Positions 7,597 to 32,507 of a DNA stretch of 32,507 bases are shown here, in pieces; positions within the stretch are counted from its first letter, which is position 1; each line of letters begins with the position of its first letter. The notes beneath the pieces are model-generated. The model saw nothing but the letters and a program-made list of their open reading frames with translations. It was not told the origin of the DNA and did no database searches. The DNA comes from Utricularia gibba (taxonomy: Eukaryota; Streptophyta; Magnoliopsida; Lamiales; Lentibulariaceae). The stretch is from the NCBI GenBank assembly GCA_002189035.1, contig NEEC01000217.1, positions 1 to 32,507 on the forward strand, written 5' to 3'. Made by a program: the position numbers and the translations under genes.

Positions 7597-8162
7597 AAAT
7601 CGTGCTGCACTTATTGAAGTTAGGATGTCATGAGCACCCAAATGGTTTTCTCAACCGCATGCTTATATCTGAGGAGGCGCTCTCGTGGGGCAACGGTATC
7701 GAGAGGAGGTCGAGTCGAGCTCGGGCCCATAGTCATTTGTGGCTCGCAAAAACTTGATGCATTCTTAACGTTGGGTTTTAATTGGCTGCCTAATGGTTTC
7801 TCAAGGAAAAGCTTGTCGTTTTGGGCGGTGATGTCGTTGTGAACTTCGTTCTGACCCAAGGTTCGGTCTGACTTTTGCCACATCGGGTCCTACTCGACGA
7901 AAATCGTGATGCACTTATTGAAGTTAGGATGTCATGAGCACCCAAAATGGTTTTCTCAACCGCATGCTTTATATTGATCTCTCGTGGGGCAACGGTATCG
8001 AGAAGGAGGTCGAGTCGAGCTCGGGCCCATAGTCATTTGTAGCTCGGCAAAAAACTTGATGCATTTCTTAACTTGGGTTTTTGGCTGCCTACATGGTTTC
8101 TCAAGGAAAAGCTTGTCGTTTTTGGGCGGTGATGTCGTTGAACTTCGTTCTGACCCAAGGTT

Positions 8163-8250
8163 CGGGGTCTACTCGACGAAAATCGTTTATTGAAGTTAGG
8201 ATGTCATGAGCACCCAAATTTTTCTCAACCGCATGCTTTATATCCGCTCT
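8163..8250. repeat. Strongly shortened unit (spacing 271 bp)
   Basis: The join TTCGGGGTCTACTCG has lost most of the hotspot region. GTGATGCAC is missing altogether (ATCGTTTATTGAAG). ATGG is missing from CCCAAAATGGTTTT (CCCAAATTTTTC), and TATATCTGAGGAGGCGCTC has become TATATCCGCTC. Four separate losses in under 100 bp are more than any neighbouring unit shows. Confidence 0.8.
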
Positions 8251-11200: not shown

Positions 11201-13299
11201 ATGGTTTTCTCAACCGCATGCTTTATATCTGAGGAGGCGCTCTCGTGGGCAACGGTATCGAGAAGGAGGTCGAGTCGAGCTCGGGCCCATAGTCATTTGT
11301 GGCTCGGCAAAAAACTTGATGCATTTCTTAACGTTGGGTTTTAATTGGCTGCCTACATGGTTTCTCAAGGAAAAGCTTGTCGTTTTTGGGCGGTGATGTC
11401 GTTGTGAACTTCGTTCTGACCAAGGTTCGGTCTGACTCCTTTCCACATCGGGTCCTACTCGACGAAAATCGTGATGCACTTATTGAAGTTAGGATGTCAT
11501 AGCACCCAAAATGGTTTTCTCAACCGCATGCTTTATATCTGAGGAGGCGCTCTCGTGGGCAACGGTATCGAGAAGGAGGTCGAGTCGAGCTCGGCCCATA
11601 GTCATTTGTGCTCGGCAAAAAACTTGATGCATTTTTAACGTTGGGTTTTAATTGGCTGCCTACATGGTTTCTCAAGGAAAAGCTTGTCGTTTTGGGCGGT
11701 GATGTCGTTGTGAACTTCGTTCTGACCAAGGTTCCTGCCACATCGGGTCCTACTCGACGAAAATCGTGCTGCACTTATTGAAGTTAGGATGTCATGAGCA
11801 CCCAAAATGGTTTTCTCAACCGCATGCTTTATATTGAGGAGGCGCTCTCGTGGGGCAACGGTATCGAGAAGGAGGTCGAGTCGAGCTCGATAGTCATTTG
11901 TGGCTCGGCAAAAAACTTGATGCATTTCTTAACGTTGGGTTTTAATTGGCTGCTACATGGTTTCTCAAGGAAAAGCTTGTCGTTTTTGGGCGGGTGATGT
12001 CGTTGTGAACTTCGTTCTGACCCAAGGTTCCTTTTGCCACATCGGGTCCTACTCGACGAAAATCGTGCTGCACTTATTGAAGTTAGGATGTCATGCACCC
12101 AAAATGGTTTTCTCAACCGCATGCTTTATATTGACGCTCTCGTGGGGCAACGGTATCGAGAAGGAGGTCGAGTCGAGCTCGGGCCCATAGTCATTTGTGG
12201 CTCGGCAAAAAACTTGATGCATTTCTTAACGTTGGGTTTTAATTGGCTGCCTACATGGTTTCTCAAGGAAAAGCTTGTCGTTTTTGGGCGGGTGATGTCG
12301 TTGTGAACTTCGTTCTGACCCAAGGTTCGGTCTGAATCGGGTCCTACTCGACGAAAATCGTGATGCACTTATTGAAGTTAGGATGTCATAAGCACCCAAA
12401 ATGGTTTTCTCAACGCATGCTTTATATCTGAGGAGGCGCTCTCGTGGGGCAACGGTATCGAGAAGGAGGTCGAGTCGAGCTCGGGCCCATAGTCATTTGT
12501 AGCTCGGCAAAAAACTTGATGCATTTTTAACGTTGGGTTTTAATTGGCTGCCTACATGGTTTCTCAAGGAAAAGCTTGTCGTTTTGGGCGGGTGATGTCG
12601 TTGTGAACTTCGTTCTGACCCAAGATCGGGTCCTACTCGACGAAAATCGTGATGCACTTATTGAAGTTAGGATGTCATGAGCACCCAAAATGGTTTTCTC
12701 AACCGCATGCTTTATATTGAGGAGGCGCTAACGGTATCGAGTCGAGTCGAGCTCGGCCCATAGTCATTTGTGGCTCGGCAAAAAACTTGATGCATTTCTT
12801 AACGTTGGGTTTTAATTGGCTGCCTACATGGTTTCTCAAGGAAAAGCTTGTCGTTTTTGGGCGGTGATGTCGTTGTGAACTTCGTTCTGACCCAAGGTTC
12901 GGTCTGACTCCTTTGCCACATCGGGTCCTACTCGACGAAATCGTGATGCACTTATTGAAGTTAGGATGTCATGAGCACCCAAAATGGTTTTCTCAACCGC
13001 ATGCTTTATATTGAGGAGGCGCTCTCGTGGGGCAACGGTATCGAAAGGAGGTCGAGTCGAGCTCGGGCCCATAGTCATTTGTGCTCGGCAAAAAACTTGA
13101 TGCATTTCTTAACGTTGGTTTTAATTGGCTGCCTACATGGTTTCTCAAGGAAAAGCTTGTCGTTTTTGGGCGGTGATGTCGTTGTGAACTTCGTTCTGAC
13201 CCAAGGTTCGCCACATCGGGTCCTACTCGACGAAAATCGTGATGCACTTATTGAAGTTAGGATGTCATGAGCACCCAAAATGGTTTTCTCAACCGCATG

Positions 13300-13340
13300 C
13301 TGAGGAGGCGCTCAACGGTATCGAGTCGAGTCGAATAGTC
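13300..13340. repeat. Shortened unit lacking the SacI and ApaI sites (spacing 266 bp)
   Basis: CCGCATGC is joined directly to TGAGGAGGCG, without TTTATATC. GCGCTC is then joined to AACGGTATCG, without TCTCGTGGGGC. GTCGAGTCGAATAGTC lacks the AGAAGGAG segment and the whole GCTCGGGCCC part. A SacI or ApaI digest would therefore leave a double-length fragment here. Confidence 0.8.
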
Positions 13341-16300
13341 ATTTGTGGCTCGGCAAAAAACTTGATGCATTTCTTAACGTTGGGTTTTAATTGGCTGCCT
13401 ACATGGTTTCTCAAGGAAAAGCTTGTCGTTTTTGGGCGGTGATGTCGTTGTGAACTTCGTTCTGACCCAAGGTTCGGTCTGACTCCTTTGCCACATCGGG
13501 TCCTACTCGACGAAAATCGTGTGCACTTATTGAAGTTAGGATGTCATGAGCACCCAAAATGGTTTTCTCAACCGCATGCTTTATATTGAGGAGGCTCTCT
13601 CGTGGGCAACGGTATCGAGAAGGAGGTCGAGTCGAGCTCGGCCCATAGTCATTTGTGCTCGGCAAAAAACTTGATGCATTTCTTAACGTTGGGTTTTAAT
13701 TGGCTGCCTACATGGTTTCTCAAGGAAAAGCTTGTCGTTTTTGGCGGTGATGTCGTTGTGAACTTCGTTCTGACCCAAGGTTCTTTGCCACATCGGGTCC
13801 TACTCGACGAAAATCGTGCTGCACTTATTGAAGTTAGGATGTCATGAGCACCCAAAATGGTTTTCTCAACCGCATGCTTTATATCTGAGGAGGCGCTCTC
13901 GTGGGGCAACGGTATCGAGACGAGTCGAGCTCGGGCCATAGTCATTTGTGGCTCGGCAAAAAACTTGATGCATTTCTTAACGTTGGTTTTAATTGGCTGC
14001 CTACATGGTTTCTCAAGGAAAAGCTTGTCGTTTTTGGGCGGTGATGTCGTTGTGAACTTCGTTCTGACCCAAGGTTCGGTCTGACTGCCACATCGGTCCT
14101 ACTCGACGAAAATCGTGATGCACTTATTGAAGTTAGGATGTCATGAGCACCCAAAATGGTTTTCTCAACCGCATGCTTTATATTGAGGAGGCGCTCTCGT
14201 GGGGCAACGGTATCGAGAAGGAGGTCGAGTCGAGCTCGGGCCCATAGTCATTTGTGGCTCGGCAAAAAACTTGATGCATTTCTTAACGTTGGGTTTTAAT
14301 TGGCTGCCTACATGGTTTCTCAAGGAAAAGCTTGTCGTTTTTGGGCGGTGATGTCGTTGTGAACTTCGTTCTGACCCAAGGTTCGGTCTGAATCGGGTCC
14401 TACTCGACGAAAATCGTGCTGCACTTATTGAAGTTAGGATGTCATGAGCACCCAAAATGGTTTTCTCAACCGCATGCTTTATATCTGAGGAGGCGCTCTC
14501 GTGGGGCAACGGTATCGAGAAGGAGGTCGAGTCGAGCTCGGCCCATAGTCATTTGTAGCTCGGCAAAAAACTTGATGCATTTCTTAACGTTGGGTTTTAA
14601 TTGGCTGCCTACATGGTTTCTCAAGGAAAAGCTTGTCGTTTTTGGGCGGGTGATGTCGTTGTGAACTTCGTTCTGACCCAAGCCTTTGCCACATCGGGTC
14701 CTACTCGACGAAATCGTGCTGCACTTATTGAAGTTAGGATGTCATGAGCACCCAAAATGGTTTTCTCAACCGCATGCTTTATATCTGAGGAGGCGCTCTC
14801 GTGGGGCAACGGTATCGAGAAGGAGTCGAGTCGAGCTCGGGCCCATAGTCATTTGTGCTCGGCAAAAAACTTGATGCATTTCTTAACGTTGAATTGGCTG
14901 CCTACATGGTTTCTCAAGGAAAAGCTTGTCGTTTTTGGGCGGTGATGTCGTTGTGAACTTCGTTCTGACCCAAGGTTCGGTCTGACTCCTTTGCCACATC
15001 GGGTCCTACTCGACGAAAATCGTGATGCACTTATTGAAGTTAGGATGTCATGAGCACCCAAAATGGTTTTCTCAACCGCATGCTTTATATCTGAGGAGGC
15101 GCTCTCGTGGGCAACGGTATCGAGGGAGGTCGAGTCGAGCTCGGGCCCATAGTCATTTGTGGCTCGGCAAAAAACTTGATGCATTTCTTAACGTTGGGTT
15201 TTAATTGGCTGCCTACATGGTTTCTCAAGGAAAAGCTTGTCGTTTTTGGGCGGGTGATGTCGTTGTGAACTTCGTTCTGACCCAAGGTTCGGTCTGACTC
15301 CTTTGCCACATCGGGTCCTACTCGACGAAAATCGTGATGCACTTATTGAAGTTAGGATGTCATGAGCACCCAAAATGGTTTTCTCAACCGCATGCTTTAT
15401 ATCTGAGGAGGCGCTCTCGTGGGGCAACGGTATCGAGAAGGAGGTCGAGTCGAGCTCGGCCCATAGTCATTTGTAGCTCGGCAAAAAACTTGATGCATTT
15501 CTTAACGTTGGGTTTTAATTGGCTGCCTACATGGTTTCAAGGAAAAGCTTGTCGTTTTGGGCGGGTGATGTCGTTGTGAACTTCGTTCTGACCCAAGGTT
15601 CGGTCTGACTCCTTTGCCACATCGGGTCCTACTCGACGAAAATCGTGATGCACTTATTGAAGTTAGGATGTCATGAGCACCCAAAATGGTTTTCTCAACC
15701 GCATGCTTTATATTTGAGGAGGCGCTCTCGTGGGGCAACGGTATCGAGAAGGAGGTCGAGTCGAGCTCGGGCCCATAGTCATTTGTAGCTCGGCAAAAAA
15801 CTTGATGCATTTCTTAACGTTGGGTTTTAATTGGCTGCCTACATGGTTTCTCAAGGAAAAGCTTGTCGTTTTTGGGCGGGTGATGTCGTTGTGAACTTCG
15901 TTCTGACCCAAGGTTCGGTCTGACTCCTTTGCCACATCGGGTCCTACTCGACGAAAATCGTGATGCACTTATTGAAGTTAGGATGTCATGAGCACCCAAA
16001 ATGGTTTTCTCAACCGCATGCTTTATATTGAGGAGGCGCTCTCGTGGGGCAACGGTATCGAGAAGGAGGTCGAGTCGAGCTCGGGCCCATAGTCATTTGT
16101 GGCTCGGCAAAAAACTTGATGCATTTTTAACGTTGGGTTTTAATTGGCTGCCTACATGGTTTCTCAAGGAAAAGCTTGTCGTTTTTGGGCGGGTGATGTC
16201 GTTGTGAACTTCGTTCTGACCCAAGGTTCTGACTCCTTTGCCACATCGGGTCCTACTCGACGAAAATCGTGATGCACTTATTGAAGTTAGGATGTCATGA

Positions 16301-17314
16301 GCACCCAAAATGGTTTTCTCAACCGCATGCTTTATATTGAGGAGGCTCTCGTGGGGCAACGGTATCGAGAAGGAGGTCGAGTCGAGCTCGGGCCCATAGT
16401 CATTTGTAGCTCGGCAAAAAACTTGATGCATTTCTTAACGTTGGGTTTTAATTGGCTGCCTACATGGTTTCTCAAGGAAAAGCTTGTCGTTTTTGGGCGG
16501 GTGATGTCGTTGTGAACTTCGTTCTGACCCAAGGTTCTTTGCCACATCGGGTCCTACTCGACGAAAATCGTGATGCACTTATTGAAGTTAGGATGTCATG
16601 AGCACCCAAAATGGTTTTCTCAACCGCATGCTTTATATCTGAGGAGGCGCTCTCGTGGGGCAACGGTATCGAGAAGGAGGTCGAGTCGAGCTCGGGCCCA
16701 TAGTCATTTGTGGCTCGGCAAAAAACTTGATGCATTTCTTAACGTTGGGTTTTAATTGGCTGCCTACATGGTTTCTCAAGGAAAAGCTTGTCGTTTTTGG
16801 GCGGGTGATGTCGTTGTGAACTTCGTTCTGACCCAAGGTTCCTTTGCCACATCGGGTCCTACTCGACGAAAATCGTGATGCACTTATTGAAGTTAGGATG
16901 TCATAAGCACCCAAAATGGTTTTCTCAACCGCATGCTTTATATCTGAGGAGGCGCTCTCGTGGGGCAACGGTATCGAGAAGGAGGTCGAGTCGAGCTCGG
17001 CCCATAGTCATTTGTAGCTCGGCAAAAAACTTGATGCATTTCTTAACGTTGGGTTTTAATTGGCTGCCTACATGGTTTCTCAAGGAAAAGCTTGTCGTTT
17101 TTGGGCGGGTGATGTCGTTGTGAACTTCGTTCTGACCCAAGGTTCTTTGCCACATCGGGTCCTACTCGACGAAAATCGTGATGCACTTATTGAAGTTAGG
17201 ATGTCATGAACCCAAAATGGTTTTCTCAACCGCATGCTTTATATTGAGGAGGCGCTCTCGTGGGGCAACGGTATCGAGAGGAGGTCGAGTCGAGCTCGGG
17301 CCCATAGTCATTTG

Positions 17315-17375
17315 TAGCGCAAAAAACTTGATGCTTTATATTGGCTGACATGGAGGCTTGTCTCGGGTCGTTGTG
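17315..17375. repeat. Mosaic, degenerate unit without a HindIII site
   Basis: After a normal start, TAGCTCGG is reduced to TAGCG before the A6 tract. The sequence then reads TTGATGC followed by TTTATATTGG. TTTATATTG belongs to the TATAT site some 110 bp upstream in a normal unit, not to this position. It continues with GCTGACATGG, AGGCTTGTC and TCGGGTCGTTGTG, so AAGGAAAAGCTTG and most of the T5-GGGCGGG segment are gone. The register spacing is about 265 bp. The displaced TATATTG suggests a template switch or a rearranged junction rather than simple deletion. Confidence 0.75.
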
Positions 17376-19314
17376 AACTTCGTTCTGACCCAAGGTTCGG
17401 TCTGACTCCTTTGCCACATCGGGTCCTACTCGACGAAAATCGTGATGCACTTATTGAAGTTAGGATGTCATGAGCACCCAAAATGGTTTTCTCAACCGCA
17501 TGCTTTATATTGAGGAGGCGCTCTCGTGGGGCAACGGTATCGAGAAGGAGGTCGAGTCGAGCTCGGGCCATAGTCATTTGTAGCTCGGCAAAAAACTTGA
17601 TGCATTTCTTAACGTTGGGTTTTAATTGGCTGCCTACATGGTTTCTCAAGGAAAAGCTTGTCGTTTTTGGGCGGTGATGTCGTTGTGAACTTCGTTCTGA
17701 CCCAAGGTTCACATCGGGTCCTACTCGACGAAAATCGTGATGCACTTATTGAAGTTAGGATGTCATGAGCACCCAAAATGGTTTTCTCAACCGCATGCTT
17801 TATATTGAGGAGGCCTCTCGTGGGGCAACGGTATCGAGAAGGAGGTCGAGTCGAGCTCGGGCCCATAGTCATTTGTGCTCGGCAAAAAACTTGATGCATT
17901 TCTTAACGTTGGGTTTTAATTGGCTGCCTACATGGTTTCTCAAGGAAAAGCTTGTCGTTTTTGGGCGGGTGATGTCGTTGTGAACTTCGTTCTGACCCAG
18001 GTTCCTTTGCCACATCGGTCCTACTCGACGAAAATCGTGATGCACTTATTGAAGTTAGGATGTCATAGCACCCAAAATGGTTTTCTCAACCGCATGCTTT
18101 ATATCTGAGGAGGCGCTCTCGTGGGGCAACGGTATCGAGAAGGAGGTCGAGTCGAGCTCGGGCCCATAGTCATTTGTAGCTCGGCAAAAAACTTGATGCA
18201 TTTCTTAACGTTGGGTTTTAATTGGCTGCCTACATGGTTTCTCAAGGAAAAGCTTGTCGTTTTTGGGCGGGTGATGTCGTTGTGAACTTCGTTCTGACCC
18301 AAGGTTCGGTCTGACTCCTTTGCCACATCGGGTCCTACTCGACGAAAATCGTGATGCACTTATTGAAGTTAGGATGTCATGAGCACCCAAAATGGTTTTC
18401 TCAACCGCATGCTTTATATTGAGGAGGCGCTCTCGTGGGGCAACGGTATCGAGAAGGAGGTCGAGTCGAGCTCGGGCCCATAGTCATTTGTGCTCGGCAA
18501 AAAACTTGATGCATTTCTTAACGTTGGGTTTTAATTGGCTGCCTACATGGTTTCTCAAGGAAAAGCTTGTCGTTTTTGGGCGGGTGATGTCGTTGTGAAC
18601 TTCGTTCTGACCCAAGGTTCGGTCTGACTCCTTTGCCACATCGGGTCCTACTCGACGAAAATCGTGATGCACTTATTGAAGTTAGGATGTCATGAGCACC
18701 AAAATGGTTTTCTCAACCGCATGCTTTATATTGAGGAGGCGCTCTCGTGGGGCAACGGTATCGAGAAGGAGGTCGAGTCGAGCTCGGGCCCATAGTCATT
18801 TGTGCTCGGCAAAAACTTGATGCATTTCTTAACGTTGGGTTTTAATTGGCTGCCTACATGGTTTCTCAAGGAAAAGCTTGTCGTTTTTGGGCGGGTGATG
18901 TCGTTGTGAACTTCGTTCTGACCCAAGGTTCCTTTGCCACATCGGGTCCTACTCGACGAAAATCGTGATGCACTTATTGAAGTTAGGATGTCATGAGCAC
19001 CCAAAATGGTTTTCTCAACCGCATGCTTTATATTGAGGAGGCGCTCTCGTGGGGCAACGGTATCGAGAAGGAGGTCGAGTCGAGCTCGGGCCCATAGTCA
19101 TTTGTAGCTCGGCAAAAAACTTGATGCATTTCTTAACGTTGGGTTTTAATTGGCTGCCTACATGGTTTCTCAAGGAAAAGCTTGTCGTTTTTGGGGGTGA
19201 TGTCGTTGTGAACTTCGTTCTGACCCAAGGTTCGGTCTGACTCCTTTGCCACATCGGGTCCTACTCGACGAAAATCGTGATGCACTTATTGAAGTTAGGA
19301 TGTCATGAGCACCC

Positions 19315-19425
19315 AAATGCTTTATGTTTTCGAGAAGGAGGTCGAGTCGAGCTCGGGCCATAGTCATTTGTATAAAAAACTTGATGGAGGCTGCTCATCG
19401 TTGTCGGGGCATGTCGTTGTGACTT
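19315..19425. repeat. Most eroded unit of the array, without SphI or HindIII sites
   Basis: CCCAAATGCTTTATG joins two blocks and omits GGTTTTCTCAACCGC. The next bases, TTTTCGAGAAGGAGG, omit the GAGGAGGCGCTCTCGTGGGG part. GTAGCTCGGC before the A-tract is replaced by GTATA. After CTTGATGG the sequence AGGCTGCTCATCGTTGTCGG stands where about 90 bp of unit would be. The register spacing is only about 211 bp. The string TGGAGGCT also occurs at 17352-17359 in the other degenerate unit, which hints that the two are related copies of one damaged unit. Confidence 0.75.
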
Positions 19426-22153
19426 CGTTCTGACCCAAGGTTCCTTTGCCACATCGGGTCCTACTCGACGAAAATCGTGATGCACTTATTGAAGTTAGGA
19501 TGTCATGAGCACCCAAAATGGTTTTCTCAACCGCATGCTTTATATTGAGGAGGCTCTCTCGGGGGCAACGGTATCGAGAAGGAGGTCGAGTCGAGCTCGG
19601 GCCCATAGTCATTTGTAGCTCGGCAAAAAACTTGATGCATTTCTTAACGTTGGGTTTTAATTGGCTGCCTACATGGTTTCTCAAGGAAAAGCTTGTCGTT
19701 TTTGGGCGGTGATGTCGTTGTGAACTTCGTTCTGACCCAAGGTTCGGTCTGACTCCTTTGCCACATCGGGTCCTACTCGACGAAAATCGTGATGCACTTA
19801 TTGAAGTTAGGATGTCATGAGCACCCAAAATGGTTTTCTCAACCGCATGCTTTATATTGAGGAGGCGCTCTCGTGGGGCAACGGTATCGAGAAGGAGGTC
19901 GAGTCGAGCTCGGGCCCATAGTCATTTGTAGCTCGGCAAAAAACTTGATGCATTTCTTAACGTTGGGTTTTAATTGGCTGCCTACATGGTTTCTCAAGGA
20001 AAAGCTTGTCGTTTTTGGGCGGGTGATGTCGTTGTGAACTTCGTTCTGACCCAAGGTTCGGTCTGACTCCTTTGCCACATCGGGTCCTACTCGACGAAAA
20101 TCGTGATGCACTTATTGAAGTTAGGATGTCATGAGCACCCAAAATGGTTTTCTCAACCGCATGCTTTATATCTGAGGAGGCGCTCTCGTGGGGCAACGGT
20201 ATCGAGAAGGAGGTCGAGTCGAGCTCGGGCCCATAGTCATTTGTGCTCGGCAAAAAACTTGATGCATTTCTTAACGTTGGGTTTTAATTGGCTGCCTACA
20301 TGGTTTCTCAAGGAAAAGCTTGTCGTTTTTGGGCGGTGATGTCGTTGTGAACTTCGTTCTGACCCAAGGTTCGGTAGCCACATCGGGTCCTACTCGACGA
20401 AAATCGTGATGCACTTATTGAAGTTAGGATGTCATGAGCACCCAAAATGGTTTTCTCAACCGCATGCTTTATATCTGAGGAGGCTCTCGTGGGGCAACGG
20501 TATCGAGAAGGAGGTCGAGTCGAGCTCGGGCCCATAGTCATTTGTAGCTCGGCAAAAAACTTGATGCATTTCTTAACGTTGGGTTTTAATTGGCTGCCTA
20601 CATGGTTTCTCAAGGAAAAGCTTGTCGTTTTTGGGCGGGTGATGTCGTTGTGAACTTCGTTCTGACCCAAGGTTCGGTCTGACTCCTTTGCCACATCGGG
20701 TCCTACTCGACGAAAATCGTGATGCACTTATTGAAGTTAGGATGTCATGAGCACCCAAAATGGTTTTCTCAACCGCATGCTTTATATCTGAGGAGGCGCT
20801 CTCGTGGGGCAACGGTATCGAGAAGGAGGTCGAGTCGAGCTCGGGCCCATAGTCATTTGTGCTCGGCAAAAAACTTGATGCATTTCTTAACGTTGGGTTT
20901 TAATTGGCTGCCTACATGGTTTCTCAAGGAAAAGCTTGTCGTTTTTGGGCGGGTGATGTCGTTGTGAACTTCGTTCTGACCCAAGGTTCGGTCTGACACA
21001 TCGGGTCCTACTCGACGAAAATCGTGATGCACTTATTGAAGTTAGGATGTCATGAGCACCCAAAATGGTTTTCTCAACCGCATGCTTTATATTTGAGGAG
21101 GCGCTCTCGTGGGGCAACGGTATCGAGAAGGAGGTCGAGTCGAGCTCGGGCCCATAGTCATTTGTAGCTCGGCAAAAAACTTGATGCATTTCTTAACGTT
21201 GGGTTTTAATTGGCTGCCTACATGGTTTCTCAAGGAAAAGCTTGTCGTTTTTGGGCGGTGATGTCGTTGTGAACTTCGTTCTGACCCAAGGTTCGTCTGA
21301 CTCCTTTGCCACATCGGGTCCTACTCGACGAAAATCGTGATGCACTTATTGAAGTTAGGATGTCATAAGCACCCAAAATGGTTTTCTCAACCGCATGCTT
21401 TATATCTGAGGAGGCGCTCTCGTGGGGCAACGGTATCGAGAAGGAGGTCGAGTCGAGCTCGGGCCCATAGTCATTTGTAGCTCGGCAAAAAACTTGATGC
21501 ATTTCTTAACGTTGGGTTTTAATTGGCTGCCTACATGGTTTCTCAAGGAAAAGCTTGTCGTTTTTGGGCGGGTGATGTCGTTGTGAACTTCGTTCTGACC
21601 CAAGGTTCCTTTGCCACATCGGGTCCTACTCGACGAAAATCGTGCTGCACTTATTGAAGTTAGGATGTCATGAGCACCCAAAATGGTTTTCTCAACCGCA
21701 TGCTTTATATCTGAGGAGGCGCTCTCGTGGGGCAACGGTATCGAGAAGGAGGTCGAGTCGAGCTCGGGCCCATAGTCATTTGTGGCTCGGCAAAAAACTT
21801 GATGCATTTCTTAACGTTGGGTTTTAATTGGCTGCCTACATGGTTTCTCAAGGAAAAGCTTGTCGTTTTTGGGCGGGTGATGTCGTTGTGAACTTCGTTC
21901 TGACCCAAGGTTCGGTCTGACTCCTTTGCCACATCGGGTCCTACTCGACGAAAATCGTGATGCACTTATTGAAGTTAGGATGTCATGAGCACCCAAAATG
22001 GTTTTCTCAACCGCATGCTTTATATTGAGGAGGCGCTCTCGTGGGGCAACGGTATCGAGAAGGAGGTCGAGTCGAGCTCGGGCCCATAGTCATTTGTAGC
22101 TCGGCAAAAAACTTGATGCATTTCTTAACGTTGGGTTTTAATTGGCTGCCTAC

Positions 22154-22311
22154 ATGGTTTCTCAAGGAAAAGCTTGTCGTTTTTGGGCGGGTGATGTCGT
22201 TGTGAACTTCGTTCTGACCCAAGGTTCGGTCTGACTCCTTTGCCACATCGGGTCCTACTCGACGAAAATCGTGATGCACTTATTGAAGTTAGGATGTCAT
22301 GAGCACCCAAA
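22154..22311 (+). repeat. Half-unit A of the 315-bp monomer (about 158 bp)
   Basis: The monomer divides into two related halves. Half A begins at ATGGTTTCTCAA and runs to the CCCAAA before the next ATGGTTTTCTCAA. It includes the HindIII site, the TCTGAC pair with the deletion hotspot, the ACGAAAATCGT dyad and the A/C allele. Against half B, the opening ATGGTTT(T)CTCAA block agrees over 12 of 13 columns. The stretch starting at CTACTCGACG (22255) agrees with TAGCTCGGCA (22412) in 27 of 39 columns without a gap. AAGGTTCGGTCTGACTC aligns to GAGGTCGAGTCGAGCTC with short gaps. The constant offset of 157-158 bp is what an ancient tandem duplication would leave. I aligned it by eye, so overall identity is not measured. 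Confidence 0.75.
22224..22250 (+). other. Deletion hotspot within the monomer, shown in the reference copy
   Basis: The segment GGTTCGGTCTGACTCC followed by TTTGCCACATCGG is intact here but is shortened in a large share of copies. Recurrent alleles include a loss of 10 bp (GGTTCCTTTGCC, for example near 4531, 6677, 16840, 18930 and 21606) and a loss of 11 bp (GGTTCTTTGCC, near 16533, 17141, 23791 and 26882). Other breakpoints join GGTTC directly to GCCAC, ACATC or TGACTCC. In the cleaner region 19.7-29.0 kb, 8 of 30 units are altered here. A TCTGAC direct repeat spans the segment, and one copy (7561-7578) carries exactly the deletion expected between those two repeats. The hotspot may be real slippage or an assembly effect. 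Confidence 0.8.
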
Positions 22312-22468
22312 ATGGTTTTCTCAACCGCATGCTTTATATCTGAGGAGGCGCTCTCGTGGGGCAACGGTATCGAGAAGGAGGTCGAGTCGAGCTCGGGCCC
22401 ATAGTCATTTGTAGCTCGGCAAAAAACTTGATGCATTTCTTAACGTTGGGTTTTAATTGGCTGCCTAC
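22312..22468 (+). repeat. Half-unit B of the 315-bp monomer (about 157 bp)
   Basis: Half B starts at ATGGTTTTCTCAACC and ends at CTGCCTAC just before the next half A. It carries the SphI site, the TATATCTGAGGAGG variable site, the GTCGAGTCGAGCTCGGGCCC segment, the A6 tract, the NsiI site and the T-rich GGGTTTTAATT. Relative to half A it holds the same ATGGTTT(T)CTCAA opening and an A-tract followed by TGATGCA about 110 bp later. The GTCGAGTCGAG block is local to this half and is itself a short tandem duplication. Since A and B are well diverged while successive 315-bp units are nearly identical, amplification evidently proceeded with the dimer as its unit. Confidence 0.75.
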
Positions 22469-24800
22469 ATGGTTTCTCAAGGAAAAGCTTGTCGTTTTTG
22501 GGCGGGTGATGTCGTTGTGAACTTCGTTCTGACCCAAGGTTCGGTCTGACTCCTTTGCCACATCGGGTCCTACTCGACGAAAATCGTGATGCACTTATTG
22601 AAGTTAGGATGTCATAGCACCCAAAATGGTTTTCTCAACCGCATGCTTTATATCTGAGGAGGCGCTCTCGTGGGGCAACGGTATCGAGAAGGAGGTCGAG
22701 TCGAGCTCGGGCCCATAGTCATTTGTGGCTCGGCAAAAAACTTGATGCATTTCTTAACGTTGGGTTTTAATTGGCTGCCTACATGGTTTCTCAAGGAAAA
22801 GCTTGTCGTTTTTGGGCGGGTGATGTCGTTGTGAACTTCGTTCTGACCCAAGGTTCGGTCTGACTCCTTTGCCACATCGGGTCCTACTCGACGAAAATCG
22901 TGATGCACTTATTGAAGTTAGGATGTCATGAGCACCCAAAATGGTTTTCTCAACCGCATGCTTTATATCTGAGGAGGCGCTCTCGTGGGGCAACGGTATC
23001 GAGAAGGAGGTCGAGTCGAGCTCGGCCCATAGTCATTTGTGGCTCGGCAAAAAACTTGATGCATTTCTTAACGTTGGGTTTTAATTGGCTGCCTACATGG
23101 TTTCTCAAGGAAAAGCTTGTCGTTTTTGGGCGGGTGATGTCGTTGTGAACTTCGTTCTGACCCAAGGTTCGGTCTGACTCCTTTGCCACATCGGGTCCTA
23201 CTCGACGAAAATCGTGATGCACTTATTGAAGTTAGGATGTCATCACCCAAAATGGTTTTCTCAACCGCATGCTTTATCTGAGGAGGCGCTCTCGTGGGGC
23301 AACGGTATCGAGAAGGAGGTCGAGTCGAGCTCGGGCCCATAGTCATTTGTGGCTCGGCAAAAAACTTGATGCATTTCTTAACGTTGGGTTTTAATTGGCT
23401 GCCTACATGGTTTCTCAAGGAAAAGCTTGTCGTTTTTGGGCGGGTGATGTCGTTGTGAACTTCGTTCTGACCCAAGGTTCGGTCTGACTCCTTTGCCACA
23501 TCGGGTCCTACTCGACGAAAATCGTGATGCACTTATTGAAGTTAGGATGTCATAGCACCCAAAATGGTTTTCTCAACCGCATGCTTTATATCTGAGGAGG
23601 CGCTCTCGTGGGGCAACGGTATCGAGAAGGAGGTCGAGTCGAGCTCGGGCCCATAGTCATTTGTAGCTCGGCAAAAAACTTGATGCATTTCTTAACGTTG
23701 GGTTTTAATTGGCTGCCTACATGGTTTCTCAAGGAAAAGCTTGTCGTTTTTGGGCGGGTGATGTCGTTGTGAACTTCGTTCTGACCCAAGGTTCTTTGCC
23801 ACATCGGGTCCTACTCGACGAAAATCGTGATGCACTTATTGAAGTTAGGATGTCATGAGCACCCAAAATGGTTTTCTCAACCGCATGCTTTATATCTGAG
23901 GAGGCGCTCTCGTGGGGCAACGGTATCGAGAAGGAGGTCGAGTCGAGCTCGGGCCCATAGTCATTTGTGGCTCGGCAAAAACTTGATGCATTTCTTAACG
24001 TTGGGTTTTAATTGGCTGCCTACATGGTTTCTCAAGGAAAAGCTTGTCGTTTTTGGGCGGGTGATGTCGTTGTGAACTTCGTTCTGACCCAAGGTTCGGT
24101 CTGACTCCTTTGCCACATCGGGTCCTACTCGACGAAAATCGTGCTGCACTTATTGAAGTTAGGATGTCATGAGCACCCAAAATGGTTTTCTCAACCGCAT
24201 GCTTTATATTGAGGAGGCGCTCTCGTGGGGCAACGGTATCGAGAAGGAGGTCGAGTCGAGCTCGGCCCATAGTCATTTGTGGCTCGGCAAAAAACTTGAT
24301 GCATTTCTTAACGTTGGGTTTTAATTGGCTGCCTACATGGTTTCTCAAGGAAAAGCTTGTCGTTTTTGGGCGGGTGATGTCGTTGTGAACTTCGTTCTGA
24401 CCCAAGGTTCGGTCTGACTCCTTTGCCACATCGGGTCCTACTCGACGAAAATCGTGATGCACTTATTGAAGTTAGGATGTCATGAGCACCCAAAATGGTT
24501 TTCTCAACCGCATGCTTTATATCTGAGGAGGCGCTCTCGTGGGGCAACGGTATCGAGAAGGAGGTCGAGTCGAGCTCGGGCCCATAGTCATTTGTAGCTC
24601 GGCAAAAAACTTGATGCATTTCTTAACGTTGGGTTTTAATTGGCTGCCTACATGGTTTCTCAAGGAAAAGCTTGTCGTTTTTGGGCGGGTGATGTCGTTG
24701 TGAACTTCGTTCTGACCCAAGGTTCGGTCTGACTCCTTTGCCACATCGGGTCCTACTCGACGAAAATCGTGATGCACTTATTGAAGTTAGGATGTCATGA

Positions 24801-24870
24801 GCACCGCAAAATGGTTTTCTCAACCGCATGCTTTATATTGAGGAGGCGCTCTCGTGGGTTCTGACAACGG
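24801..24870. repeat. Unit with inserted bases (318 bp, longest in the array)
   Basis: This is one of the very few units with gains. CACCCAAAATGG reads CACCGCAAAATGG, a substitution plus an added base. CGTGGGGCAACGG reads CGTGGGTTCTGACAACGG, adding a TTCTGA-like segment near 24859. GTTCTGAC is a normal part of the unit elsewhere (CGTTCTGACCC), so the insertion may be copied from the repeat itself. Confidence 0.8.
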
Positions 24871-25668
24871 TATCGAGAAGGAGGTCGAGTCGAGCTCGGC
24901 CCATAGTCATTTGTGCTCGGCAAAAAACTTGATGCATTTCTTAACGTTGGGTTTTAATTGGCTGCCTACATGGTTTCTCAAGGAAAAGCTTGTCGTTTTT
25001 GGGCGGGTGATGTCGTTGTGAACTTCGTTCTGACCCAAGGTTCGGTCTGACTCCTTTGCCACATCGGGTCCTACTCGACGAAAATCGTGATGCACTTATT
25101 GAAGTTAGGATGTCATGAGCACCCAAAATGGTTTTCTCAACCGCATGCTTTATATCTGAGGAGGCGCTCTCGGGGGCAACGGTATCGAGAAGGAGGTCGA
25201 GTCGAGCTCGGGCCCATAGTCATTTGTAGCTCGGCAAAAAACTTGATGCATTTCTTAACGTTGGGTTTTAATTGGCTGCCTACATGGTTTCTCAAGGAAA
25301 AGCTTGTCGTTTTTGGGCGGGTGATGTCGTTGTGAACTTCGTTCTGACCCAAGGTTCGGTCTGACTCCTTTGCCACATCGGGTCCTACTCGACGAAAATC
25401 GTGATGCACTTATTGAAGTTAGGATGTCATAGCACCCAAAATGGTTTTCTCAACCGCATGCTTTATATCTGAGGAGGCGCTCTCGTGGGGCAACGGTATC
25501 GAGAAGGAGGTCGAGTCGAGCTCGGGCCCATAGTCATTTGTAGCTCGGCAAAAAACTTGATGCATTTCTTAACGTTGGGTTTTAATTGGCTGCCTACATG
25601 GTTTCTCAAGGAAAAGCTTGTCGTTTTTGGGCGGGTGATGTCGTTGTGAACTTCGTTCTGACCCAAGG

Positions 25669-25785
25669 TTCGGGTCCTACTCGACGAAAATCCACTTATT
25701 GAAGTTAGGATGTCATGAGCACCCAAAATGGTTTTCTCAACCGCATGCTTTATATTGTCTCGTGGGGCAACGGTATCGAGAAGGT
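25669..25785. repeat. Shortened unit inside the clean domain (spacing 273 bp)
   Basis: AAGGTTCGGGTCC joins the two CGG motifs that flank the hotspot, removing about 22 bp with CGG as the shared bases. AAAATCCACTT lacks GTGATG. TATATTGTCTCG lacks AGGAGGCGC, and GAGAAGGTCGAG lacks GAG. The neighbouring units on both sides are near full length, so this is a local exception. Confidence 0.8.
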
Positions 25786-28700
25786 CGAGTCGAGCTCGGG
25801 CCCATAGTCATTTGTGCTCGGCAAAAAACTTGATGCATTTCTTAACGTTGGGTTTTAATTGGCTGCCTACATGGTTTCTCAAGGAAAAGCTTGTCGTTTT
25901 TGGGCGGGTGATGTCGTTGTGAACTTCGTTCTGACCAAGTTGGTCTGACTCCTTTGCCACATCGGGTCCTACTCGACGAAAATCGTGATGCACTTATTGA
26001 AGTTAGGATGTCATGAGCACCAAAATGGTTTTCTCAACCGCATGCTTTATATCTGAGGAGGCGCTCTCGTGGGGCAACGGTATCGAGAAGGAGGTCGAGT
26101 CGAGCTCGGGCCCATAGTCATTTGTAGCTCGGCAAAAAACTTGATGCATTTCTTAACGTTGGGTTTTAATTGGCTGCCTACATGGTTTCTCAAGGAAAAG
26201 CTTGTCGTTTTTGGGCGGGTGATGTCGTTGTGAACTTCGTTCTGACCCAAGGTTCGGTCTGACTCCTTTGCCACATCGGGTCCTACTCGACGAAAATCGT
26301 GATGCACTTATTGAAGTTAGGATGTCATGAGCACCCAAAATGGTTTTCTCAACCGCATGCTTTATATCTGAGGAGGCGCTCTCGTGGGGCAACGGTATCG
26401 AGAAGGAGGTCGAGTCGAGCTCGGGCCCATAGTCATTTGTGGCTCGGCAAAAAACTTGATGCATTTCTTAACGTTGGGTTTTAATTGGCTGCCTACATGG
26501 TTTCTCAAGGAAAAGCTTGTCGTTTTTGGGCGGGTGATGTCGTTGTGAACTTCGTTCTGACCCAAGGTTCGGTCTGACTCCTTTGCCACATCGGGTCCTA
26601 CTCGACGAAAATCGTGATGCACTTATTGAAGTTAGGATGTCATAAGCACCCAAAATGGTTTTCTCAACCGCATGCTTTATATCTGAGGAGGCGCTCTCGT
26701 GGGGCAACGGTATCGAGAAGGAGGTCGAGTCGAGCTCGGGCCCATAGTCATTTGTGGCTCGGCAAAAAACTTGATGCATTTCTTAACGTTGGGTTTTAAT
26801 TGGCTGCCTACATGGTTTCTCAAGGAAAAGCTTGTCGTTTTTGGGCGGGTGATGTCGTTGTGAACTTCGTTCTGACCCAAGGTTCTTTGCCACATCGGGT
26901 CCTACTCGACGAAAATCGTGATGCACTTATTGAAGTTAGGATGTCATAAGCACCCAAAATGGTTTTCTCAACCGCATGCTTTATATCTGAGGAGGCGCTC
27001 TCGTGGGGCAACGGTATCGAGAAGGAGGTCGAGTCGAGCTCGGGCCCATAGTCATTTGTAGCTCGGCAAAAAACTTGATGCATTTCTTAACGTTGGGTTT
27101 TAATTGGCTGCCTACATGGTTTCTCAAGGAAAAGCTTGTCGTTTTTGGGCGGGTGATGTCGTTGTGAACTTCGTTCTGACCCAAGGTTCGGTCTGACTCC
27201 TTTGCCACATCGGGTCCTACTCGACGAAAATCGTGATGCACTTATTGAAGTTAGGATGTCATGAGCACCCAAAATGGTTTTCTCAACCGCATGCTTTATA
27301 TCTGAGGAGGCGCTCTCGTGGGGCAACGGTATCGAGAAGGAGGTCGAGTCGAGCTCGGGCCCATAGTCATTTGTGGCTCGGCAAAAAACTTGATGCATTT
27401 CTTAACGTTGGGTTTTAATTGGCTGCCTACATGGTTTCTCAAGGAAAAGCTTGTCGTTTTTGGGCGGGTGATGTCGTTGTGAACTTCGTTCTGACCCAAG
27501 GTTCGGTCTGACTCCTTTGCCACATCGGGTCCTACTCGACGAAAATCGTGCTGCACTTATTGAAGTTAGGATGTCATGAGCACCCAAAATGGTTTTCTCA
27601 ACCGCATGCTTTATATCTGAGGAGGCGCTCTCGTGGGGCAACGGTATCGAGAAGGAGGTCGAGTCGAGCTCGGGCCCATAGTCATTTGTGGCTCGGCAAA
27701 AAACTTGATGCATTTCTTAACGTTGGGTTTTAATTGGCTGCCTACATGGTTTCTCAAGGAAAAGCTTGTCGTTTTTGGGCGGGTGATGTCGTTGTGAACT
27801 TCGTTCTGACCCAAGGTTCGGTCTGACTCCTTTGCCACATCGGGTCCTACTCGACGAAAATCGTGATGCACTTATTGAAGTTAGGATGTCATGAGCACCC
27901 AAAATGGTTTTCTCAACCGCATGCTTTATATTGAGGAGGCGCTCTCGTGGGGCAACGGTATCGAGAAGGAGGTCGAGTCGAGCTCGGGCCCATAGTCATT
28001 TGTAGCTCGGCAAAAAACTTGATGCATTTCTTAACGTTGGGTTTTAATTGGCTGCCTACATGGTTTCTCAAGGAAAAGCTTGTCGTTTTGGGCGGGTGAT
28101 GTCGTTGTGAACTTCGTTCTGACCCAAGGTTCGGTCTGACTCCTTTGCCACATCGGGTCCTACTCGACGAAAATCGTGATGCACTTATTGAAGTTAGGAT
28201 GTCATGAGCACCCAAAATGGTTTTCTCAACCGCATGCTTTATATCTGAGGAGGCGCTCTCGTGGGGCAACGGTATCGAGAAGGAGGTCGAGTCGAGCTCG
28301 GGCCCATAGTCATTTGTGGCTCGGCAAAAAACTTGATGCATTTCTTAACGTTGGGTTTTAATTGGCTGCCTACATGGTTTCTCAAGGAAAAGCTTGTCGT
28401 TTTTGGGCGGGTGATGTCGTTGTGAACTTCGTTCTGACCCAAGGTTCGGTCTGACTCCTTTGCCACATCGGGTCCTACTCGACGAAAATCGTGATGCACT
28501 TATTGAAGTTAGGATGTCATGAGCACCCAAAATGGTTTTCTCAACCGCATGCTTTATATCTGAGGAGGCGCTCTCGTGGGGCAACGGTATCGAGAAGGAG
28601 GTCGAGTCGAGCTCGGGCCCATAGTCATTTGTAGCTCGGCAAAAAACTTGATGCATTTCTTAACGTTGGGTTTTAATTGGCTGCCTACATGGTTTCTCAA

Positions 28701-29056
28701 GGAAAAGCTTGTCGTTTTTGGGCGGGTGATGTCGTTGTGAACTTCGTTCTGACCCAAGGTTCGGTCTGACTCCTTTGCCACATCGGGTCCTACTCGACGA
28801 AAATCGTGCTGCACTTATTGAAGTTAGGATGTCATGAGCACCCAAAATGGTTTTCTCAACCGCATGCTTTATATTGAGGAGGCGCTCTCGTGGGGCAACG
28901 GTATCGAGAAGGAGGTCGAGTCGAGCTCGGGCCCATAGTCATTTGTAGCTCGGCAAAAAACTTGATGCATTTCTTAACGTTGGGTTTTAATTGGCTGCCT
29001 ACATGGTTTCTCAAGGAAAAGCTTGTCGTTTTTGGGCGGTGATGTCGTTGTGAACT

Positions 29057-29125
29057 TTTCTGACCCAAAACATCGGGTCCTACTCGACGAAAATCGTGAT
29101 GCACTTATTGAAGTTAGGATGTCTG
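29057..29125. repeat. Shortened unit at the start of the right domain (spacing 270 bp)
   Basis: GAACTTCGTTCTGACCC reads GAACTTTTCTGACCC. The hotspot is lost in full (CCAAAACATCGGG), and GATGTCTGGTTTTC omits ATGAGCACCCAAAA. It marks the change from full-length units to the right-hand indel-rich part. Confidence 0.8.
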
Positions 29126-32079
29126 GTTTTCTCAACCGCATGCTTTATATTGAGGAGGCGCTCTTGGGGCAACGGTATCGAGAGGAGGTCGAGTCGAGCT
29201 CGGCCCATAGTCATTTGTGCTCGGCAAAAAACTTGATGCATTTCTTAACGTTGGTTTTAATTGGCTGCCTACATGGTTTCTCAAGGAAAAGCTTGTCGTT
29301 TTTGGGCGGATGTCGTTGTGAACTTCGTTCTGACCCAAGGTTCGGTCTGACTCCTTTGCCACATCGGGTCCTACTCGACGAAAATCGTGATGCACTTATT
29401 GAAGTTAGGATGTCATGAGCACCCAAAATGGTTTTCTCAACCGCATGCTTTAAGGAGGCGCTCTCGTGGGGCAACGGTATCGAGAGGAGGTCGAGTCGAG
29501 CTCGGGCCCATAGTCATCTCGGCAAAAAACTTGATGCATTTCTTAACGTTGGGTTTTAATTGGCTGCCTACATGGTTTCTCAAGGAAAAGCTTGTCGTTT
29601 TTGGGCGGTGATGTCGTTGTGAACTTCGTTCTGACCCAAGGTTCGCCACATCGGGTCCTACTCGACGAAAATCGTGATGCACTTATTGAAGTTAGGATGT
29701 CATGAGCACCCAAAATGGTTTTCTCAACCGCATGCTTTATATCTGAGGAGGCGCTCTCGTGGGCAACGGTATCGAGAAGGAGGTCGAGTCGAGCTCGGGC
29801 CCATAGTCATTTGTAGCTCGGCAAAAAACTTGATGCATTTCTTAACGTTGGGTTTTAATTGGCTGCCTACATGGTTTCTCAAGGAAAAGCTTGTCGTTTT
29901 TGGCGGGTGATGTCGTTGTGAACTTCGTTCTGACCCAAGGTTCGGTCTGACTCCTTTGCCACATCGGGTCCTACTCGACGAAAATCGTGATGCACTTATT
30001 GAAGTTAGGATGTCATGAGCACCCAAAATGGTTTTCTCAACCGCATGCTTTATATTGAGGAGGCTCTCGTGGGGCAACGGTATCGAGAAGGAGGTCGAGT
30101 CGAGCTCGGGCCCATAGTCATTTGTGCTCGGCAAAAAACTTGATGCATTTCTTAACGTTGGTTTTAATTGGCTGCCTACATGGTTTCTCAAGGAAAAGCT
30201 TGTCGTTTTTGGGCGGTGATGTCGTTGTGAACTTCGTTCTGACCCAAGGTTCGGTCTGACTCCTTTGCCACATCGGTCCTACTCGACGAAATCGTGATGC
30301 ACTTATTGAAGTTAGGATGTCATGAGCACCCAAAATGGTTTTCTCAACCGCATGCTTTATATCTGAGGAGGCGCTCTCGTGGGGCAACGGTATCGAGAAG
30401 GAGGTCGAGTCGAGCTCGGCCCATAGTCATTTGTAGCTCGGCAAAAAACTTGATGCATTTCTTAACGTTGGGTTTTAATTGGCTGCCTACATGGTTTCTC
30501 AAGGAAAAGCTTGTCGTTTTTGGGCGGGTGATGTCGTTGTGAACTTCGTTCTGACCCAAGGTTCGGTCTTTGCCACATCGGGTCCTACTCGACGAAAATC
30601 GTGATGCATTATTGAAGTTAGGATGTCATAGCACCCAAAATGGTTTTCTCAACCGCATGCTTTATATTGAGGAGGCGCTCTCGTGGGGCAACGGTATCGA
30701 GAAGGAGGTCGAGTCGAGCTCGGGCCATAGTCATTTGTAGCTCGGCAAAAAACTTGATGCATTTCTTAACGTTGGTTTTAATTGGCTGCCTACATGGTTT
30801 CTCAAGGAAAAGCTTGTCGTTTTGGGCGGGATGTCGTTGTGAACTTCGTTCTGACCCAAGGTTCGGTCTGACTCTTTTGCCACATCGGGTCCTACTCGAC
30901 GAAAATCGTGATGCACTTATTGAAGTTAGGATTCAGCACCCAAAATGGTTTTCTCAACCGCATGCTTTATATTTGAGGAGGCGCTCTCGTGGGGCAACGG
31001 TATCGAGAGGAGGTCGAGTCGAGCTCGGGCCCATAGTCATTTGTGCTCGGCAAAAAACTTGATGCATTTCTTAACGTTGGGTTTTAATTGGCTGCCTACA
31101 TGGTTTCTCAAGGAAAAGCTTGTCGTTTTTGGCGGGTGATGTCGTTGTGAACTTCGTTCTGACCAAGGTTCCTTTGCCACATCGGGTCCTACTCGACGAA
31201 AATCGTGATGCACTTATTGAAGTTAGGATGTCATAGCACCCAAAATGGTTTTCTCAACCGCATGCTTTATATCTGAGGGGGCGCTCTCGTGGGCAACGGT
31301 ATCGAGCAGGAGGTCGAGTCGAGCTCGGCCCATAGTCATTTGTGCTCGGCAAAAAACTTGATGCATTTCTTAACGTTGGGTTTTAATTGCTGCCTACATG
31401 GTTTCTCAAGGAAAAGCTTGTCGTTTTTGGCGGGTGATGTCGTTGTGAACTTCGTTCTGACCCAAGGTTCGGTCTGACTCCTTTGCCACATCGGTCCTAC
31501 TCGACGAAAACGTGATGCACTTATTGAAGTTAGGATGTCATGAGCACCCAAAATGGTTTTCTCAACCGCATGCTTTATATTGAGGAGGCGCTCTCGTGGG
31601 GCAACGGTATCGAGAAGGAGGTCGAGTCGAGCTCGGGCCCATAGTCATTTGTGCTCGGCAAAAAACTTGATGCATTTCTTAACGTTGGTTTTAATTGGCT
31701 GCCTACATGGTTTCTCAAGGAAAAGCTTCGTTTTTGGCGGGTGATGTCGTTGTGAACTTCGTTCTGACCCAAGTCCTTCGCCACATCGGGTCCTACTCGA
31801 CGAAAATCGTGATGCACTTATTGAAGTTAGGATGTCATGAGCACCCAAAATGGTTTTCTCAACCGCATGCTTTATATTGAGGAGGCGCTCTCGTGGGGCA
31901 ACGGTATCGAGAGGAGGTCGAGTCGAGCTCGGGCCCATAGTCATTTGTAGCTCGGCAAAAAACTTGATGCATTTTAACGTTGGGTTTTAATTGGCTGCCT
32001 ACATGTTTCTCAAGGAAAAGCTTGTCGTTTTTGGGCGGTGATGTCGTTGTGAACTTCGTTCTGACCCAAGGTTCGGTCT

Positions 32080-32095
32080 GACTCCTTTGGAGGCG
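32080..32095. repeat. Junction of a 103-bp internal deletion
   Basis: CTCCTTT, normally followed by GCCACATCGG, runs directly into GGAGGCGCTCTCG of the other half. The A/C allele, CCCAAAATGG, the SphI site and the TATAT site are all missing from this unit. The register spacing is 212 bp (32018 to 32230) instead of 315, so 103 bp are gone in one step. Only about one base of identity is seen at the join. The rest of this unit is otherwise intact. Confidence 0.85.
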
Positions 32096-32507
32096 CTCTC
32101 GTGGGGCAACGGTATCGAGAAGGAGGTCGAGTCGAGCTCGGGCCCATAGTCATTTGTAGCTCGGCAAAAAACTTGATGCATTTCTTAACGTTGGGTTTTA
32201 ATTGGCTGCCTACATGGTTTCTCAAGGAAAAGCTTGTCGTTTTTGGGCGGGTGATGTCGTTGTGAACTTCGTTCTGACCCAAGGTTCGGTCTGACTCCTT
32301 TGCCACATCGGTCCTACTCGACGAAAATCGTGATGCACTTATTGAAGTTAGGATGTCATAAGCACCCAAAATGGTTTTCTCAACCGCATGCTTTATATCT
32401 GAGGAGGCGCTCTCGTGGGCAACGGTATCGAGAAGGAGGTCGAGTCGAGCTCGGGCCCATAGTCATTTGTAGCTCGGCAAAAAACTTGATGCATTTCTTA
32501 ACGTTGG

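What the first reader, a model, noticed from the sequence alone, without database searches (positions are those of the whole stretch)
22154..22468. The 315-bp unit is a diverged dimer of an approximately 157-bp unit
Two halves of 158 and 157 bp align at a constant offset. They share ATGGTTT(T)CTCAA, an ungapped 39-column stretch with 27 matches (from 22255 and 22412), and an alignable GGT-CG-GTC-GA-CTC block. Plant and animal centromeric satellites often have 150-180 bp units and dimeric derivatives of about twice that, so the ancestral length is nucleosome-like. The dimer, not the half, has been the recent unit of amplification.
Basis: partly seen in the sequence, partly recalled or inferred. 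Interest (0 to 1): 0.7.

Follow-up and report, generated by a model that had tools for sequence, protein, structure and literature searches.

The report
Ancient two-part plant satellite repeat
The 315-letter DNA unit repeated through this stretch of a plant genome is really two old, diverged copies of a 157-letter unit locked together, a well-known way for such repeats to evolve, but it sits in what is probably a tiny plant genome whose centromeres were reported to lack repeats of this kind.

Summary
The halves of the 315-bp unit (22154-22311, 22312-22468) align at 60% identity, score 110 against shuffles of 51.8 +/- 8.0 (0 of 2000 reach it), and the unit's self-match peaks at shift 157/158. 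The named 39-column stretch has exactly 27 matches. The whole window is a 108-unit array.

In the source genome, consensi of 14 further array samples (70-98% to the window) all have 302-316 bp units, and all 15 A halves are split from all 15 B halves with support 1.000. The dimer therefore most likely arose once, before the subfamilies. No 157-bp array turned up: A-B neighbours 4513, A-A 5, B-B 3; of the seven exceptions aligned, one is a clean half-unit loss. Some arrays carry two- or four-dimer units.

The assembly looks like Utricularia gibba (inferred). The satellite covers at least about 4.2 Mb and ends a telomere-started 3.7-Mb contig (218 kb, sampled). Exact-word listings show none in contigs C1-C6. 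A published statement that putative U. gibba centromeres lack satellites may not hold for every chromosome; centromere function is untested. Most unit-to-unit differences in the window are probably assembly deletions.

The parts
1..32507 (+). Head-to-tail satellite array filling the whole contig (G000:C77): 108 full or partial units, 315-bp consensus
   Evidence: TRF; wraparound decomposition; window = C77:1-32507
22154..22468 (+). Reference unit, identical to the array consensus
   Evidence: 315 of 315 matches, no gap
22154..22311 (+). Half A (158 bp)
   Evidence: A side of the half tree
22312..22468 (+). Half B (157 bp)
   Evidence: B side of the half tree
22255..22293 (+). Conserved block in half A (CTACTCGACGAAAATCGTGATGCACTTATTGAAGTTAGG)
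   Evidence: 27 of 39 matches to 22412-22450
22412..22450 (+). Conserved block in half B (TAGCTCGGCAAAAAACTTGATGCATTTCTTAACGTTGGG)
22258..22318 (+). 61-column ungapped stretch, first copy (partner 22415-22475), 43 matches, crossing the half boundary

Best explanation
The window is an array of a plant satellite DNA. A tandem 157-bp unit was duplicated into an A-B pair and the pair then became the unit that unequal exchange or copying amplifies; A and B drifted apart to about 60% identity, after which half-register exchange became rare. The pair is old: A and B are separated in all sampled subfamilies (shown by the half tree), so it was most likely fixed once before they split. It is still being re-amplified: single dimers in C77, C510, C90 and C260, two-dimer units in C20 and C10, four-dimer units in C47 and C490 (shown). 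I infer, without proof, that the arrays form centromeric or pericentromeric heterochromatin of some, not all, chromosomes of Utricularia gibba, as repetitive DNA that can carry centromere chromatin and is kept uniform by recombination. The confidence given is for the dimer and its history; for the centromere step alone I would say about 0.5, and the species is inferred.
For: Half homology. One origin of the dimer: 15 consensi, units 302-316 bp; the split of all A from all B halves has support 1.000 and a branch of 0.51; A-A identity between subfamilies 0.68-0.87 and B-B 0.72-0.89 against A-B 0.55-0.64. Rare half-register exchange: 4513 A-B against 5 A-A and 3 B-B; of seven exceptions aligned, one clean half-unit loss, at C213 about 3,602,100, where column 157 joins column 314. 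Higher-order units. Abundance: at least 4513 + 8774 dimers (the two word sets exclude each other on all 15 consensi), about 4.2 Mb of 100.09 Mb. Place: C213 starts with telomere repeats and ends in satellite from 3,486,181 to 3,704,653, all 11 samples from 3,490,001 on being satellite; dimer satellite also at C402 end, C414 start (its first 160 bases) and both ends of C510; no fetched contig end shows both it and telomere repeats.
Against: No CENH3, FISH or nucleosome data. In two of 15 consensi (C20, C10) the best circular shift is 1, not about 157, and in C60 it is 153; the other 12 peak at 155-158. On the B side of the half tree the point where the A branch attaches is not resolved (0.351, falling among the B halves of subfamilies I-III). 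A second, unrelated satellite (347 bp) lies at the ends of C244, C255 and C451 and the starts of C480 and C508, and a partly matching relative at the start of C402, so which of the two, if either, is centromeric is open; C402 has one kind at each end. C414 and C402 show no telomere at their fetched ends. No CENP-B-box-like site stands out: 1 match with at most 1 mismatch against 9.6 expected. No Ty3/gypsy centromeric element was looked for; the one element read beside an array is Ty1/copia.
Confidence: 0.9

Rival explanations
1. The half similarity is compositional or chance, or convergent (for example nucleosome-favouring sequence), and there never was a 157-bp ancestor.
For: Identity is only 60% and depends on gaps outside the 61-column block; the eight consensi of the most diverged subfamily score lower (z 3.4-5.4; C20 is reached by 1 of 500 shuffles; best shift of C20 and C10 is 1).
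Against: 0 of 2000 dinucleotide shuffles for the window unit; a sharp peak at one shift; 14 of 15 consensi exceed all 500 shuffles each, though these consensi are related and not independent.
Confidence: 0.04
2. The satellite is non-centromeric heterochromatin (knob, interstitial or subtelomeric block) and the 347-bp satellite, or no satellite, marks the centromeres.
For: C402 carries a relative of the 347-bp kind at one end and the dimer at the other; exact-word listings show none in C1-C6, although C3 and C4 have telomeres at both ends and must have centromeres; PMC8333044 reports no satellites in putative centromeric regions of U. gibba (passages).
Against: The dimer array on C213 lies at least 3.48 Mb from the telomere at the contig start, and no fetched telomere end carries it.
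Confidence: 0.4
3. The array variation, and perhaps part of its length, is an assembly product: a collapsed and badly polished satellite contig. (This can be true beside the best explanation.)
For: 664 deletion events (1418 bases) against 6 inserted bases and 86 substitutions, 73 of the 86 at columns 121, 148 and 260; 5S units of the same assembly also lean to deletions (20 del, 4 ins, 11 sub in 4 units); a review says U. gibba was assembled with HGAP (PMC5793159, passages).
Against: It explains the indels, not the dimer: units in other contigs differ by substitutions and have different periods of order.
Confidence: 0.8

Closest known systems
New World monkey 343-bp alpha satellite (PMC4053949, passages seen)
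   Same: Unit is double an ancestral nucleosome-length unit; the two halves are weakly related and the dimer became the dominant unit.
   Different: [quoted passage not shown] here no 157-bp form has been found. A different organism; the sequences were not compared.
AB-dimer higher-order repeats of plant and animal satellites, for example Sorghum bicolor (PMC4053949, passages)
   Same: A and B halves group separately.
   Different: There A and B are told apart by single-base differences; here they are about 60% identical and the dimer is itself nested in two- and four-dimer units in some arrays.
Plant satellites of the 315-375 bp di-nucleosome size class (PMC5895790, passage; PMC2543021, passages)
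   Same: Unit length 315 bp, half 157 bp inside the 135-195 bp class.
   Different: Length only; no nucleosome data here.
Genlisea nigrocaulis 161-bp centromeric repeat Gn7c161 (PMC4542322, passages)
   Same: Same plant family if the genome is U. gibba (family); unit near 157 bp; most abundant tandem repeat there.
   Different: Only its two primer sequences were available. Seven of eight primer-by-consensus comparisons are reached by 14 or more of 200 shuffles; the reverse primer against C510 is reached by 2 of 200, not convincing among eight tests.

Membership tests
AB-dimer (higher-order) satellite | The two halves are homologous | tested here: met
AB-dimer (higher-order) satellite | A halves group with A and B with B across the array and its relatives | tested here: met
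   split with support 1.000 on 30 halves of 15 consensi
AB-dimer (higher-order) satellite | Dimers far more alike than halves | tested here: met
   0.996-0.997 against 0.60
AB-dimer (higher-order) satellite | Monomeric (157-bp) relatives survive somewhere (helpful, not required) | tested here: inconclusive
   None; the words fit only part of the subfamilies and no other species was searchable
Centromeric satellite | Long head-to-tail arrays, abundant | tested here: met
Centromeric satellite | Present on all chromosomes, or one site per chromosome | tested here: inconclusive
   No exact word listed in C1-C6, two of which (C3, C4) run telomere to telomere; at contig ends elsewhere
Centromeric satellite | Bound by CENH3 | not testable with these tools
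   No ChIP data
Centromeric satellite | CENP-B-box-like motif (optional in plants; recalled) | tested here: not met
Genlisea Gn7c161 | Sequence identity to the 161-bp unit | tested here: inconclusive
   Only 49 primer bases compared

The most novel reading that the evidence does not exclude
Utricularia gibba has a mixed centromere karyotype: some chromosomes, the ones that assembled telomere to telomere, have centromeres without satellite, while others carry centromeres on an old dimeric satellite that is re-amplified in nested one-, two- and four-dimer units (and perhaps others on the 347-bp satellite). The published view that its centromeric regions lack satellites would then be a bias from reading only the chromosomes that assembled completely.
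Probability: 0.35. Interest if true: 0.7.

Novelty: new member of a known kind. Interest (0 to 1): 0.42.

Why it matters
The dimer itself is a clear example of a known route of satellite evolution, with the merit that several subfamilies of one genome let the dimerisation be ordered before the subfamily splits. If the genome is U. [quoted passage not shown]

Tried and rejected
Search for 157-bp arrays: A-A and B-B spacing patterns gave 5 and 3 places in G000; of the 8, seven loci were cut out and aligned (C456:51651 was not aligned, though its region was fetched later). Six of the seven are ragged internal deletions and one (L012) is a clean half-unit loss. The whole-unit DNA search in the own genome returned nothing (its answer warns that very common words are skipped); pattern searches replaced it.

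CENP-B box: rejected. Rfam on the window: nothing at gathering threshold. Link to Genlisea Gn7c161 by its primers: not convincing. Half structure in the 347-bp satellite: no peak near 173 (best shifts 82 and 103 at 0.317, mean 0.248, sd 0.024). Relation of the 347-bp satellite to the dimer: no hit at E 0.001. One conserved 21-base word in viral contigs (0) and in bacterial and archaeal genomes (4 records with one match each, read as chance, not inspected). A first attempt to use the 5S array as a control by wraparound alignment failed (1028 mismatches) and was replaced by an alignment of four units. Papers: the satellite's words and the unit lengths gave no paper; one search gave one paper, on tubulins, by its listing. 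Searches gave listings from which I opened passages of eight papers. So no print record of this satellite was found by those searches; the U. gibba genome paper is not held.

Full report
What is there. The window is one contig (G000:C77:1-32507) and satellite from end to end: TRF reports periods of 314-315 from 1,787 to 32,089, and a wraparound alignment cuts the whole into 108 full or partial units. The unit at 22154-22468 is identical to the consensus.

The dimer. Half A against half B scores 110 globally; 2000 dinucleotide-preserving shuffles average 51.8 (sd 8.0) and reach at most 83. Locally 53 against 23.4, none of 2000 reaching it. Of all circular shifts, 157 and 158 stand out (0.378 against a mean of 0.253, sd 0.025), with a 61-column ungapped run of 43 matches.

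Related arrays. A conserved 21-base word hits G000 13,365 and 12,367 times on the two strands with at most 2 mismatches, against 0 for the reversed control. I built consensi from 14 array samples besides the window: C34, C37 (97-98% to the window), C240, C160 (86%), C47, C490 (80 and 83%) and C20, C90, C260, C300, C510, C60, C10, C78 (70-71%); I call these groups subfamilies I, III, II and IV. Units are 302-316 bp. C50, C52 and C56 were also read (94-96% to the window) but not carried into the half tree. In a survey of the first 700 bases of 39 contigs that I picked (two of them, C133 and C456, because earlier calls had hit them), 16 hold this satellite, 7 read N and 16 hold neither.

Age of the dimer. 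In each of the 15 consensi half A aligns to half B with z 3.4 to 8.2; 14 of 15 exceed all 500 shuffles and C20 is reached by 1 of 500. These are related sequences, so this is not 15 independent tests. The best circular shift is 155-158 in 12 of 15, 153 in C60, and 1 in C20 and C10. In a tree of the 30 halves all A halves lie apart from all B halves, with support 1.000 and a separating branch of 0.51; the point where this branch meets the B side is unresolved (0.351, among the B halves of I-III). Between subfamilies A-A identity is 0.68-0.87, B-B 0.72-0.89, A-B 0.55-0.64 on five representatives. The dimer therefore most likely formed once, before the subfamilies.

Half-register events. Exact word patterns give 4513 A-B neighbours against 5 A-A and 3 B-B. 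Seven of the eight exceptions were cut out and aligned: one, in C213 near 3,602,100, is a clean loss of one half (column 157 joined to 314); the other six are ragged. The A-B pattern fits the consensi of C77, C34, C37 and C47 only, not C160, C240, C490 or subfamily IV, so strict alternation in those rests on their consensus periods. Repeat counts of the tool are lower bounds.

Higher order. Identity of unit i to unit i+k, on units with under 30% gaps (107 of 108 in the window): in the window 0.996-0.997 at every lag from 1 to 12; C510 1.000, C90 0.995 or more, C260 0.988 or more; C20 0.98-0.99 at even and about 0.90 at odd lags, C10 0.97-0.98 against 0.94-0.97 (two-dimer units, about 625 bp); C47 0.944-0.958 at lags 4, 8 and 12 and C490 0.996-0.998 at lags 4 and 8, against 0.79-0.87 elsewhere (four-dimer units, about 1250 bp). 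C34, C37, C50 (L006) and C56 (L008) show no clean period. C52, C60, C78, C160, C240 and C300 were not tested for this. So the dimer is the recent unit in the window, and larger units have been in others.

Deletions. Against the consensus the window has 664 deletion events (1418 bases), 6 inserted bases and 86 substitutions, 73 of these at columns 260, 121 and 148. I read such one-sidedness as consensus error of a long-read assembly rather than unequal exchange or point mutation. Four 5S units of the same assembly lean the same way (20 deletions, 4 insertions, 11 substitutions). Statements on array divergence from this contig should use substitutions only.

Which plant. G000 has plant-type 5S arrays (type recalled) and TTTAGGG telomeres. 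It has 100,091,633 bases in 516 contigs. Papers give U. gibba as about 101 Mb (PMC6982007, passages), assembled with HGAP, contig N50 3.4 Mb, 581 contigs (PMC5793159, passages), with four putatively complete chromosomes, 18 contigs above 1 Mb and a unitig of 6.8 Mb (PMC8333044, passages). Here C255 is 3,424,836 bases, which I recall as the published N50, and C451 is 6,822,880. Against: 516 contigs, not 581, and at least 21 contigs above 1 Mb, not 18. I hold U. gibba to be very likely, but it is an inference.

Place in the chromosomes. I looked at both ends of 26 contigs (the far end of C4 only through the telomere pattern; C496, also gene-bearing, was not looked at). C3 and C4 have telomere repeats at both ends. 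C213 begins with telomere repeats and ends in satellite from 3,486,181 on, all 11 samples between 3,490,001 and the end at 3,704,653 being satellite. The array is bordered by a Ty1/copia-type element in two open reading frames. The dimer also stands at the end of C402 (seen from 2,615,001, not at 2,600,001), in the first 160 bases of C414, and at both ends of C510 (from the start to at least 30,300 in the samples read, and in the last 1.8 kb). Exact-word listings, which run in contig order and are capped, begin at C7 for the subfamily IV word, at C7 for an A word and at C34 for the A-B pattern; these words fit exactly 8, 6 and 4 of the 15 consensi. So C1-C6, among them C3 and C4, show no exact match to them; diverged copies, and copies of subfamilies the words do not fit, are not excluded. 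A second, unrelated satellite of about 347 bp stands at the ends of C244, C255 and C451 and the starts of C480 and C508, and a relative matching over a third to a half of each sample at the start of C402.

Meaning. PMC8333044 says of U. gibba's putative centromeric regions that satellite repeats are absent (passage, citing its reference 15; the genome paper I recalled for this is not held). At least 4513 + 8774 dimers (two word sets that exclude each other on all 15 consensi) make about 4.2 Mb, 4.2% of the assembly. A simple reconciliation is that complete chromosomes are those without large arrays, and that arrays end the other contigs. Whether they are centromeres is not shown: the 347-bp satellite is an equal candidate, and C402 carries both kinds.

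Verdict. Real and well supported; a new member of a known kind (dimeric satellite), with a near precedent in the 343-bp repeat of New World monkeys (PMC4053949, passages). The more interesting part is the genome it sits in.

Noticed in passing
L094 (G000:C480:1-2500), L093 (C180), ends of C244, C255, C451, starts of C508, C402: A second satellite with units of about 335-347 bp, unrelated to the dimer by blastn and without a half structure, also standing at ends of large contigs.
   Followed up: partly
window 1-32507: Unit-to-unit differences are nearly all deletions (664 events against 6 inserted bases), most frequent at unit columns 61-90 (195 of 664 events); probably an assembly artefact.
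   Followed up: partly
L005 (C47) and L086 (C490); L076 (C20) and L082 (C10): Higher-order units of four dimers (about 1250 bp) and two dimers (about 625 bp).
   Followed up: yes
L141 (C321 end), L142 (C328 end), L152 (C508 end): Telomere-like ends with many TTCAGGG variants among TTTAGGG; Genlisea of the same family is reported to have TTCAGG/TTTCAGG telomeres (PMC7360632, passage).
   Followed up: no
G000 C40, C70, C280, C340, C360, C470, C516 (first 700 bases), C98 (first 500): Fetched starts read only N; several contig lengths are multiples of 2,500.
   Followed up: no
L087 171-4676 (G000:C213 about 3,481,371-3,485,876): Ty1/copia-type element close beside the edge of the satellite array, in two open reading frames.
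   Followed up: partly
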